Source: Hyphomicrobiales bacterium
Lineage (GTDB): Bacteria > Pseudomonadota > Alphaproteobacteria > Rhizobiales > Rhizobiaceae
Direction: 5' to 3'
Assembly: GCA_900473915.1 (NCBI GenBank)
Contig: UCNG01000006.1
Location: forward strand, 186,001 to 250,000
Length of the DNA: 64,000 nucleotides
Shown here: one piece after another, positions 44,909 through 52,340 of the stretch
Position numbering within the stretch: the stretch's first letter is position 1
How the letters are laid out: each line of letters begins with the position of its first letter
The notes under the pieces: model-generated
Databases searched by the model: none
What the model was told of the DNA's origin: nothing
Seen by the model: the letters and a program-made list of their open reading frames with translations, nothing else
Translations under genes and position numbers: made by a program

Positions 44909-45919
44909 GTGAGTATAAATTTCAGATCGTCAGGTATATCTGCGGAGCGCATGGCGACACGGCGCATCCTCGTTGCAGGTGGTGCAGGCTTTCTCGGTTC
45001 TCACCTTTGCGAGCGTCTTTTGAGCGAAGGAAACTTCGTCATCTGCGTCGACAATTTTTCGACGGGGCGGCTTGAGAACCTGCGCAATCTCCTGCGTTAC
45101 GACACGTTCAGCTTCGTGCGCCACGATATCGTCAATCCGATCGACCTGCCGGTGGACGAGATTTACAATCTGGCTTGCCCTGCCTCGCCGCCGCATTATC
45201 AGGCCGACCCGGTCCATACGATGAAGACGAGCGTCATCGGTTCGCTCAACCTGCTGGAACTCGCGGCGCATTATCAGGCGCGGATCTTCCAGGCATCGAC
45301 TTCGGAAGTCTATGGCGACCCGCAAACCCATCCGCAGCCGGAAGCCTATTGGGGCAATGTCAACTCCTTCGGCCCTCGGTCCTGCTATGATGAAGGCAAG
45401 CGCTCGGCCGAAACGCTGTTCTACGATTTTCACAAGCAATATGGCGTCGATATCCGCATCGTGCGCATCTTCAACACCTATGGTCCGCGCATGCGGCCCG
45501 ATGATGGGCGCGTCGTGTCGAATTTCATCGTTCAGGCGCTCAAGCGCGAAGACATCACCATCTATGGCGACGGCTCGCAGACCCGTTCCTTCTGCTATGT
45601 CGATGATCTGATCGAAGGTTTCTGCCGGTTGATGAGCAGCCGGATTCAGCAGCCCGTCAATCTCGGCAATCCGGGCGAGTTCACCGTGCGCGAACTGGCT
45701 GAACAGATCATCGCGCTGACAGGTTCATCCTCGCGCATAGTCCATCGTCCGCTGCCAACCGACGATCCGCGCCAGCGCCGCCCGGACATTACGCTCGCCA
45801 AGCGTGAGCTTGGCTGGGAACCCCAGATAGCGCTTGTCGAAGGACTGAAGCAGACCATCGCCTATTTCGAACGCCAGCTTGTCAGGCCATCGGGCGAGCT
45901 TTTCGAGGTGGCGAGATGA
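44909..45919 (+). CDS. UDP-glucuronate decarboxylase-like SDR (UXS)
   Basis: NAD-dependent SDR of 336 residues. Motifs: VAGGAGFLGSH near residue 22, VDNFSTGRLENL, ACPASPPHYQ (typical of UDP-xylose synthase), YGDPQTHPQPE, SCYDEGKR with the catalytic Y-x-x-x-K and FNTYGPRMRPDDGRVVSNF. The reaction would be UDP-glucuronate to UDP-xylose. I use GTG at 44909, which has GGAGG 5 bases before it; ATG at 44951 is an alternative. It would take UDP-glucuronate from the Ugd coded in the same locus. Confidence 0.88.
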   Translation: MSINFRSSGISAERMATRRILVAGGAGFLGSHLCERLLSEGNFVICVDNFSTGRLENLRNLLRYDTFSFVRHDIVNPIDLPVDEIYNLACPASPPHYQADPVHTMKTSVIGSLNLLELAAHYQARIFQASTSEVYGDPQTHPQPEAYWGNVNSFGPRSCYDEGKRSAETLFYDFHKQYGVDIRIVRIFNTYGPRMRPDDGRVVSNFIVQALKREDITIYGDGSQTRSFCYVDDLIEGFCRLMSSRIQQPVNLGNPGEFTVRELAEQIIALTGSSSRIVHRPLPTDDPRQRRPDITLAKRELGWEPQIALVEGLKQTIAYFERQLVRPSGELFEVAR

Positions 45920-46902
45920 CACGGCCCAACATCCTCGTCACCGGCGGCGCGGGCTTCATCGGAAGCCATACGGCCAAGCTCCTGCACGAAAACGGATTCT
46001 CGCCGGTCGTCTACGACAACCTGTCGACGGGCCACCGGTCTTCCGTGCGCTGGGGCGAGTTTGTCGAGGGGGACACGCTTTCTCAAGATCAGCTTGTCGC
46101 TGCGATCAGGAGCTTCGATCCGGCTGCGATCATTCACTTTGCCGCCTCGGCCTATGTGGGGGAATCCGTCACGGACCCGGCGAAATATTATCGCAACAAT
46201 GTCGGCGGCATCCAGTCCGTTCTGGAAGCAAGCCGCCTGACGGGCGGACGCCCCGTCATCTTTTCCTCGAGCTGCGCCACCTATGGCATTCCGGATGTGC
46301 TGCCGATCCGTGAAGGGCAAACGCAAAATCCGATCAATCCCTATGGGCGCACGAAACTGATTGCCGAACATATGCTGGCCGACTATTCGGCAGCCTATGG
46401 CTTGCCCTATGCGGCGCTGCGCTACTTCAATGCCTGCGGCGCTGATCTGGATGGCGAACTGGGCGAAAAGCACGATCCCGAAACGCATCTGATACCCCGC
46501 GCCATGCTGGCTGCGGCGGGAAAGGCGGATTGCCTCGAAGTTTATGGCGATGATTACGACACGCCGGACGGCACCTGCATCCGCGACTATATTCACGTGG
46601 TCGATCTGGCGCGGGCCCATGTGCTTGCGGTCGAGCATCTGCTGAATGGCGGTGGCAATCTGGTTCTTAATCTCGGAACCGGGCGCGGAACATCCATCCG
46701 GGAAATCGTGGATGCGATAGACCGGCTGACCGGTCGCACGGTGCCTGTCGAAATGCGCCCGCGCCGGGCGGGCGATCCGCCGGTGCTTTATGCCGATCCG
46801 GCTGAAGCGGCTGCGAAGCTCGGCTTCCGCACGCTTCATTCCGATCTCGACACGATCATCCGCACGGCAGCACCCTTCTTTGGTCTGGAGATGCGGTCAT
46901 GA
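45916..46902 (+). CDS. galE: UDP-glucose 4-epimerase
   Basis: Epimerase of 328 residues: ILVTGGAGFIGSHTAKLL, NNVGGIQSVLEA, SSSCATYGIP, NPYGRTKLIAE (catalytic Y-x-x-x-K) and RDYIHVVDLA. It interconverts UDP-Glc/UDP-Gal or the uronates. Its ATG overlaps the stop of the preceding SDR (ATGA), and its own stop overlaps the synthase start, so the precursor enzymes are co-translated. Confidence 0.9.
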   Translation: MTRPNILVTGGAGFIGSHTAKLLHENGFSPVVYDNLSTGHRSSVRWGEFVEGDTLSQDQLVAAIRSFDPAAIIHFAASAYVGESVTDPAKYYRNNVGGIQSVLEASRLTGGRPVIFSSSCATYGIPDVLPIREGQTQNPINPYGRTKLIAEHMLADYSAAYGLPYAALRYFNACGADLDGELGEKHDPETHLIPRAMLAAAGKADCLEVYGDDYDTPDGTCIRDYIHVVDLARAHVLAVEHLLNGGGNLVLNLGTGRGTSIREIVDAIDRLTGRTVPVEMRPRRAGDPPVLYADPAEAAAKLGFRTLHSDLDTIIRTAAPFFGLEMRS

Positions 46903-51771: not shown

Positions 51772-51821
51772 TCCGCAAGGCGGATCAGTTTGCGCTCCAA
51801 CATCTGAACAGGATTACGACA

Positions 51822-52340
51822 ATGTTTTCGATCCGTTTGAGAACCGTCAGTGCGGCGCTGGCCGTGCTTCTTCTGGCAGGTGCTGCCGATGCCGCGCCGA
51901 AGCAGAAAGCCGACGATCCGGTCGCCGCCAAGGCTGCTGCGGCGGCGCCGCTATCAGCCAGGGCACTTGAGGCGCTTTATTCCGGCAGGACGTGGAAATG
52001 GAAGGATGGCGGCGGCTATTTCTCTGCCGACAGACATCGTTTCATCGCCTGGTCGCAGAAGGGCAGGGCGTGGTCTTACGGGCAGGGGCGCTGGTACGCT
52101 ACTGACAGCGGCAAGCTTTGCCTGCAAGCCTATTGGGTCAACAAGATGGGCGGCGGCGGCGACACGACCTGCTTCCTCCATCGCGAGAAAGAAGGCGTCA
52201 TCTACCAGAAGCGCTCGCTGGGCGGCACGTGGTACGTCTTCCGCAACAATCCGCCGCGCCCGTCCGACGAGGCCGCCAAGCTTCTGCGTGGCGACCGCGT
52301 AAGCAAGGGACTGGCGCGCATGAAAGCCGCAGCGAGTTGA
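51822..52340 (+). CDS. DUF995 secreted protein 2
   Basis: Protein of 172 residues: signal peptide (VSAALAVLLLAGAADAAPK) and DUF995 domain (LEALYSGRTWKWKDGGGYF, GRAWSYGQGRWYATDSGKLCLQAYW, EGVIYQKRSLGGTWYVFRN). The ATG at 51822 was chosen because it begins the signal peptide; the frame is open from 51714. Paralog of the protein at 50234 but with a longer linker after the signal. Last gene of the locus. Confidence 0.8.
   Translation: MFSIRLRTVSAALAVLLLAGAADAAPKQKADDPVAAKAAAAAPLSARALEALYSGRTWKWKDGGGYFSADRHRFIAWSQKGRAWSYGQGRWYATDSGKLCLQAYWVNKMGGGGDTTCFLHREKEGVIYQKRSLGGTWYVFRNNPPRPSDEAAKLLRGDRVSKGLARMKAAAS

What the first reader, a model, noticed from the sequence alone, without database searches (positions are those of the whole stretch)
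44909..52340. Undescribed synthase-dependent exopolysaccharide system candidate
Seven genes: UXS-like decarboxylase, GalE, processive-type GT2, Ugd, DUF995, GH26-like hydrolase, DUF995. Several overlap. Synthase plus a dedicated periplasmic hydrolase recalls cellulose (BcsA/BcsZ) and alginate systems, but the GT2 has an unusual QEFQW motif, the hydrolase is GH26, and the DUF995 pair is of unknown function. Precursors predicted are UDP-glucuronate, UDP-xylose and UDP-galactose. No bcsB-like or c-di-GMP gene is seen.
Basis: inference. Interest (0 to 1): 0.7.

Follow-up and report, generated by a model that had tools for sequence, protein, structure and literature searches.

The report
Rhizobial-type arabinose polysaccharide (APS) gene cluster
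These genes are a soil bacterium's version of a sugar-polymer factory already described in the alfalfa symbiont Sinorhizobium meliloti, where it makes a sticky arabinose-containing coat; the surroundings add a few parts not listed in the one operon description I could read.

Summary
The seven genes are real. Together they are not an undescribed system: in order they match the arabinose-containing polysaccharide (APS) operon of Sinorhizobium meliloti, uxs1-uxe-apsS-apsH1-apsE-apsH2 (PMC7902896, passages). Identities to pSymB are 45-72%. The one extra gene is ugd, between apsS and apsH1.

A homologue of CuxR, the c-di-GMP-responsive AraC activator of APS, lies just downstream at 53136-54284. It keeps an RxxxR motif; its best PDB match is 5nla (E 5.8e-94). 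'GalE' is closest to the gene at the uxe position (68%; next pSymB homologue 51%), so UDP-L-arabinose is the expected precursor.

Three additions. (1) A 43-bp element upstream of uxs exceeds the best of 1,700 shuffles in 83 of 85 clusters and occurs once in the nearest named 4.4-Mb genome; probably the CuxR operator. (2) Strong DUF995 hits (E < 1e-30) occur in exactly the genomes with ApsS: 32 of 247 in a family draw, 5 of 150 in an order draw. (3) A small convergent gene accompanies 77 of 86 clusters, including S. meliloti.

The sugar composition here is inferred, not shown.

The parts
44723..44765 (+). Predicted CuxR operator upstream of uxs (AAATGnACnnnnnGATAAnTTTCCGGATTnnnnGATAACGACA type)
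   Evidence: Scores 33 of 36 specified positions; next best site in the window 21; maximum of 1,700 shuffled upstream regions 22; 83 of 85 clusters exceed that maximum.
44909..45919 (+). UDP-glucuronate decarboxylase (UDP-xylose synthase), uxs1 homologue
   Evidence: 72% identical to the gene at the uxs1 position of pSymB, 85% to Phyllobacterium; start agrees with the annotated start in L033.
45916..46902 (+). UDP-sugar 4-epimerase, uxe homologue (UDP-xylose/UDP-L-arabinose, probably also UDP-Glc/UDP-Gal)
   Evidence: 68% to the pSymB gene at the uxe position, next pSymB homologue 51%; TIGR01179 above cut-off.
46899..48743 (+). GT2 polymerising synthase, apsS homologue
   Evidence: 70.5% to S. 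meliloti; BcsA-like, PDB 5ej1 E 3e-14; DADH, AEDH and QEFQW in 87 of 87 rows, DEDP in 86 of 87.
48817..50253 (+). UDP-glucose 6-dehydrogenase (Ugd), not found in the S. meliloti operon
   Evidence: PF03721, PF00984, PF03720; no hit in L031; present in 56 of 80 scan loci.
50234..50815 (+). DUF995 exported protein, apsH1 homologue
   Evidence: PF06191 E 1e-57; 45% to the gene at the apsH1 position; beta-barrel model, mean pLDDT 86.
50827..51771 (+). GH26 exported hydrolase, apsE homologue
   Evidence: PF02156 E 2e-6; 59% to the gene at the apsE position; model closest to a family 26 lichenase, E 2e-16; Glu152 and Glu256 invariant in 48 of 48 rows.
51822..52340 (+). DUF995 exported protein, apsH2 homologue (ORF opens at 51714)
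   Evidence: PF06191 E 2e-58; 49% to the gene at the apsH2 position.
52518..52823 (-). Small protein with signal-like N-terminus and C-terminal CTPSGFG...C motif, convergent with apsH2
   Evidence: No Pfam family; profile hit in 78 of 86 clusters, 77 of them on the opposite strand within 1.5 kb downstream, S. meliloti included.
53136..54284 (+). AraC-family activator, CuxR homologue with RxxxR motif
   Evidence: Best PDB match 5nla_A, E 5.8e-94; 45% to the gene divergent from uxs1 in pSymB; RxxxR in 84 of 87 rows.

Best explanation
The locus is an APS (arabinose-containing polysaccharide) operon of the S. meliloti type in an Ochrobactrum-like bacterium (nearest named genome: Brucella pseudintermedia). 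Ugd oxidises UDP-glucose to UDP-glucuronate, Uxs decarboxylates it to UDP-xylose, and Uxe epimerises that to UDP-L-arabinose (pyranose; no mutase gene was seen in the cluster). ApsS, a BcsA-like GT2 with flanking membrane helices, polymerises and translocates the chain. Two exported DUF995 beta-barrels (ApsH1, ApsH2) and an exported GH26 (ApsE) handle and trim it in the periplasm. A CuxR homologue switches the operon on when c-di-GMP is high, by binding the element at 44723-44765. Shown here by sequence: homology, gene order, RxxxR and the conserved element. Inferred: sugar, linkage, c-di-GMP binding, operator function, protein locations, roles of DUF995 and GH26, and the outer-membrane exit.
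For: Gene-by-gene collinearity with pSymB: UXS 72%, GalE 68%, GT2 70.5%, DUF995 45% and 49%, GH26 59%, AraC 45%. Published operon order uxs1-uxe-apsS-apsH1-apsE-apsH2 and control by CuxR/c-di-GMP (PMC7902896 and PMC9495663, passages). CuxR-type regulator. Conserved upstream element. Same order in 53 of 80 scan loci with ugd and 12 of 80 without. ApsS and strong DUF995 hits occur in exactly the same genomes of two draws.
Against: No chemical data for this organism. ApsH1 and ApsH2 are only 45-49% identical to the S. meliloti proteins. No outer-membrane pore gene was recognised among the 10 proteins scanned. Uxe probably makes UDP-galactose too, so the polymer could hold galactose. The two primary S. 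meliloti papers could not be read. R. favelukesii LPU83 carries an APS-like cluster but showed no wrinkled or red colonies, so the genes alone do not guarantee the phenotype.
Confidence: 0.88

Rival explanations
1. A homologous synthase cluster whose polymer has diverged: for example a heteropolymer of galactose, xylose and/or glucuronic acid made because ugd is built into the operon and Uxe is bifunctional. This is not exclusive of the best explanation: it shares the homology and differs only in the product.
For: ugd lies in the operon here and in 56 of 80 scan loci; the epimerase scores above the galE cut-off; the title of the S. meliloti 2019 paper calls the epimerase bifunctional (reference list seen).
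Against: There is one GT2 only, and its QEFQW, DADH and AEDH motifs are the same in rows with and without ugd (87 of 87 rows). Ugd also makes the substrate of Uxs, so its presence is explained by UDP-xylose supply.
Confidence: 0.2
2. An undescribed exopolysaccharide system unrelated to known ones.
For: DUF995 has no described function in the library searched: the word gave 1 unrelated paper. QEFQW differs from the usual QxxRW (the latter recalled).
Against: Collinearity with the S. meliloti APS operon and a CuxR homologue.
Confidence: 0.02
3. A glucomannan (gmsA) or cellulose (bcs) locus.
For: GT2 plus glycanase recalls bcsA/bcsZ; GH26 includes mannanases.
Against: No BcsB, BcsC or PilZ family among the 10 proteins scanned. 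The CelA model scores 56.5 against a cut-off of 699. In strain 3841 gmsA is RL1661 (passages), while its APS cluster lies at 592-615 kb of the chromosome (L105); that these are different places is inferred from locus-tag numbering.
Confidence: 0.02

Closest known systems
[quoted passage not shown]
   Same: Gene content, order, strand and regulator family; upstream element present (30 of 36 positions in S. meliloti); a small convergent gene after apsH2.
   Different: The window has ugd between apsS and apsH1. cuxR lies downstream in the same direction instead of divergent upstream. Identities are 45-72%.
APS-like cluster of Rhizobium favelukesii LPU83, pLPU83d (PMC7902896, passages)
   Same: The same operon recognised by others outside S. 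meliloti.
   Different: No wrinkled or red colonies were seen there; its sequence was not compared here.
Bacterial cellulose synthase BcsA (PDB 4hg6, 5ej1)
   Same: GT2 core with DAD, ED and a Q...W motif at aligned positions.
   Different: No PilZ family match, no BcsB or BcsC match in the proteins scanned; QEFQW.
GH26 lichenase CtLic26 (2cip, 2vi0) and beta-1,3-xylanase (2ddx)
   Same: Fold, and a glutamate aligned with the RWAYE stretch of 2ddx.
   Different: 18-20% identity to the lichenase entries; substrate unknown.

Membership tests
S. [quoted passage not shown]
   one insertion, ugd.
S. meliloti-type APS operon | 4-epimerase nearer to Uxe than to other pSymB epimerases | tested here: met
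   68% to the gene at the uxe position against 51% to the next pSymB homologue; no tree was built and activity was not tested.
S. meliloti-type APS operon | CuxR-type AraC activator near the operon | tested here: met
   located downstream instead of divergent.
S. meliloti-type APS operon | RxxxR motif for c-di-GMP in the activator (role recalled from the 2017 abstract) | tested here: met
   ERRQSAR in the window; RxxxR in 84 of 87 rows; binding itself not testable.
S. meliloti-type APS operon | Arabinose-containing product, Congo red-binding wrinkled colonies at high c-di-GMP | not testable with these tools
   Needs chemistry.
Cellulose synthase complex | BcsB, BcsC and a PilZ domain on the synthase | tested here: not met
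   None among the 10 cluster and neighbour proteins scanned; the rest of the genome was not searched for them.
GH26 | GH26 profile, TIM-barrel, two catalytic glutamates | tested here: met
   PF02156 above cut-off, fold, E152 and E256 invariant in 48 of 48 rows; catalytic roles assigned by analogy.

The most novel reading that the evidence does not exclude
DUF995 is a lipocalin-like periplasmic barrel family that evolved with, and serves only, the arabinose-polymer synthase ApsS. The small CTPSGFG protein is a further APS component. One c-di-GMP operator defines a small regulon that can also hold a stand-alone DUF995 and a polysaccharide acyltransferase (Nitratireductor luteus, L126). The S. 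meliloti operon is then a reduced form of an older, self-sufficient ugd-bearing operon.
Probability: 0.4. Interest if true: 0.5.

Novelty: new member of a known kind. Interest (0 to 1): 0.35.

Why it matters
It turns a supposed new system into a described one and so gives precise, testable predictions: sugar, regulator, operator. It ties a domain of unknown function (DUF995) to one pathway and adds a conserved small gene and an operator motif that can be tested at once in S. meliloti laboratory strains. By homology the same locus occurs in Ochrobactrum, Kaistia, Nitratireductor, Chelativorans, Phyllobacterium, Pseudochrobactrum and Mesorhizobium as well as in rhizobia.

Tried and rejected
Glucomannan (gmsA) was considered first because GH26 includes mannanases. 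The gmsA papers (passages of PMC4149787 and PMC11406972) place gmsA at RL1661, and strain 3841 has an APS cluster at 592-615 kb, so it was dropped. Cellulose was rejected. A paper search for the recalled S. meliloti locus tag SMb20460 found nothing.

A GGDEF gene near the cluster was seen in 25 of 80 loci, but one query and no background count were used, so no claim is made. Second CuxR-like genes with an element in two R. lusitanum genomes (L128, L130) had no recognisable target gene after it. In strain 3841 a second element lies near a CuxR-like fragment (L125) with no APS gene found around it.

Foldseek against the PDB gave no significant match for the DUF995 model (best E 0.066, 0 matches at E <= 0.001). 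'Lipocalin-like' rests on the barrel topology and a weak match to 3hty (E 0.78, TM 0.54 by target length) and is a lead only. Sequence searches of the PDB with DUF995 gave nothing credible.

Searches used a consensus with one N too many. One search found nothing for that reason; searches are the corrected runs.

Small-gene counts differ by method: tblastn found it in 47 of 80 scan loci, a profile in 78 of 86 loci. The profile was built from the 52 tblastn finds and the window, so those 52 match by construction; 26 of the other 34 were new. Of the 8 without it, 3 end near a contig edge (L092, L096, L112) and 5 are R. leguminosarum-group or Neorhizobium (L105, L107, L109, L111, L115). Against a strict link: in strain 3841 the only single-sequence hit lies far from the cluster (G068:C1:98583), and in L077 the gene is 3.2 kb away.

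Element counts: the consensus was drawn from the same upstream regions it was scored on, so the shuffle comparison is not independent of the training set. The whole-genome counts with a reversed control are a better check, though its pattern comes from the same loci. L095 (no uxs) and L113 (uxs at the contig edge) were left out of the 85. L077 and L094 lack both the element and a neighbouring cuxR, but L074 and L098 have the element without a neighbouring cuxR; all four genomes hold a CuxR-like gene elsewhere.

Co-occurrence depends on the cut: five family genomes and three order genomes have weaker DUF995 hits without ApsS.

Full report
What is there. UXS/GalE and GalE/GT2 overlap by 4 nt each, which suggests one transcript. 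Three products have an N-terminal hydrophobic, signal-like stretch by eye (both DUF995 and GH26). The GT2 has hydrophobic segments on both sides of the catalytic domain.

Where it comes from. The window's assembly is not held. The closest named locus is Brucella (Ochrobactrum) pseudintermedia, with GT2 98% identical (L037). In the nearest genus, 20 of 35 genomes hold a strong GT2 match (two of them in pieces).

Identity of the system. PMC7902896 (passages) describes the S. [quoted passage not shown] PMC9495663 (passages) says the same of CuxR. I fetched S. meliloti 1021 pSymB around the GT2 match (L031; no features are listed there). It holds, in order: AraC (-), UXS, GalE, GT2, DUF995, GH26, DUF995. 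Window identities are 45, 72, 68, 70.5, 45, 59 and 49%. No Ugd hit was found in L031. In Phyllobacterium zundukense the annotated order is helix-turn-helix protein (-), UDP-glucuronate decarboxylase, galE, GT2, UDP-glucose dehydrogenase, DUF995, GH26, DUF995, which is the window's form apart from the place of the regulator.

Regulator. The AraC gene at 53136-54284 matches PDB 5nla at E 5.8e-94 over residues 13-352. The record's molecule is named only a putative transcriptional regulator; the stretch shown reads, by eye, like the pSymB AraC ORF, and that it is CuxR is my recall. The RxxxR motif, which I recall as the c-di-GMP contact from the 2017 abstract, is ERRQSAR in the window and ERRRWPR in S. 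meliloti, and is kept in 84 of 87 aligned rows. The three misses are two short pieces of a gene read in two frames in L039 and one unrelated AraC piece in L044.

Distribution. One genome-contig scan gave 80 loci out of 337 that encode a relative (only the best 80 are kept, so the sample leans to the window's kin). Among these 80: UXS 79, GalE 80, GT2 80, GH26 80, Ugd 56, at least one DUF995 78, at least two 65, AraC 74 (a single query per gene, so counts for divergent genes are lower bounds). Order UXS-GalE-GT2-Ugd-DUF995-GH26-DUF995: 53 of 80; without Ugd: 12 of 80; the other 15 lack one or more genes by this search. On a quick ApsS tree of 87 rows, ugd presence needs 7 changes, and the Sinorhizobium/Ensifer, R. 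leguminosarum-group and Neorhizobium rows without ugd form one clade of 18 (of 26 rows without ugd). This fits loss of ugd in that clade, but the root is not inferred.

DUF995 and ApsS travel together. In 247 genomes of the family draw, ApsS (E <= 1e-60) is in 32. DUF995 is in 37 at E <= 1e-10, including all 32; the other five have only weaker hits (best per genome 2e-23 to 5e-11), and at E < 1e-30 the two sets are identical. In 150 genomes of the order draw, ApsS is in 5, and DUF995 is strong in the same 5 and weak (1e-13 to 7e-4) in 3 more. The two draws share genomes, and in one genome (G142) the two lie on different contigs. The search for 'DUF995' in papers gave one unrelated hit; 'apsH1' gave only PMC7902896, as did 'uxs1' with 'uxe' and 'Sinorhizobium meliloti'.

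DUF995 structure. The mature ApsH1 model is confident (mean pLDDT 86, 116 of 150 residues at 90 or more): a small antiparallel beta-barrel. Invariant in 77 of 77 rows are W29, W31, G34, F45, G60, W62, G68, C71, W76, C88, Q100, W108, F111. The two cysteines may be bonded. There is no significant PDB match. Most strands look too short to cross a membrane, so a soluble periplasmic, possibly polymer-binding role is my inference.

ApsE. The model's top six PDB hits are family 26 lichenase entries by their titles (two titles are cut short; E 2e-16 to 9e-16, 18-20% identity). The seventh is an entry titled for a transporter. E152 and E256 are invariant in 48 of 48 rows; E152 aligns with the glutamate of RWAYE in 2ddx.

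Upstream element. Comparing 49 non-redundant upstream regions showed strongly repeated dyads, the top one in 20 of 49 against 3 in each of three shuffled sets. The derived 43-bp element (36 specified positions) scores 33 in the window at 44723-44765 and exceeds the maximum of 1,700 shuffles in 83 of 85 clusters. In whole genomes or records it occurs 1 to 3 times in 8 of 8 searched, up to 3 mismatches allowed, and the reversed control 0 times in all 8. Sites are single in the B. pseudintermedia genome, pSymB and the O. quorumnocens plasmid. In Nitratireductor luteus two further sites precede a stand-alone DUF995 gene and an Acyl_transf_3 gene. The GATAA-like blocks of the consensus lie 20 bp apart, as expected for an AraC-type site (inference). 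That CuxR binds here is not shown.

Small convergent gene. The ORF at 52518-52823 (-) has no Pfam family. A profile finds it in 78 of 86 clusters, 77 on the opposite strand within 1.5 kb downstream, including S. meliloti L031 13112-13447 (E 2e-12). A single-sequence search finds it as the only hit in pSymB, about 0.2 kb after apsH2 (E 1.9e-4). It is not in the operon list of PMC7902896. It is missing next to the R. leguminosarum-group clusters. Its role is unknown; a link to APS export or anchoring is a guess.

Mechanism. UDP-Glc to UDP-GlcA to UDP-Xyl to UDP-L-Ara by Ugd, Uxs and Uxe; ApsS polymerises and moves the chain across the inner membrane; ApsH1, ApsH2 and ApsE act outside it. No outer-membrane exit was recognised here and this remains unexplained. 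Because no mutase gene was seen in the cluster, the polymer is predicted to be of arabinopyranose (inference).

Verdict. A new, slightly extended member of a described kind.

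Noticed in passing
window 9886-13584 (-): A 1232-aa autotransporter with an Exo_endo_phos domain and PATR repeats in its passenger.
   Followed up: no
L126 5669-6835 and 7263-7793 (-): Nitratireductor luteus: a stand-alone DUF995 gene and an Acyl_transf_3 gene, each preceded by the same upstream element as APS operons.
   Followed up: partly
L063, L071, L077, L088, L094, L095, L096: In 7 of 80 loci a second GH26 gene (42-45% to the window's) lies on the opposite strand after the cluster.
   Followed up: no
L036 2122-9983: Shinella plasmid pShin-11: uxs, galE and apsS are each in pieces, apsS split around a Tn3-family transposase; looks like a decaying copy.
   Followed up: no
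L104: A contig titled Bacillus subtilis SK6B4 carries an APS cluster whose synthase groups with Pseudochrobactrum on the tree; probably a contaminated or mislabelled assembly.
   Followed up: no
L039 and L059: In two Ochrobactrum-type genomes the cuxR homologue (L039), or apsS, ugd and apsE (L059), are read in more than one frame; sequencing error or decay not decided.
   Followed up: no
G243, G291, G303, G361, G371: Five family genomes without ApsS hold divergent DUF995 homologues (best E 2e-23 to 5e-11); their context was not looked at.
   Followed up: no
window 43897-44580 (+): A DUF922 gene ends about 330 bp before uxs.
   Followed up: no
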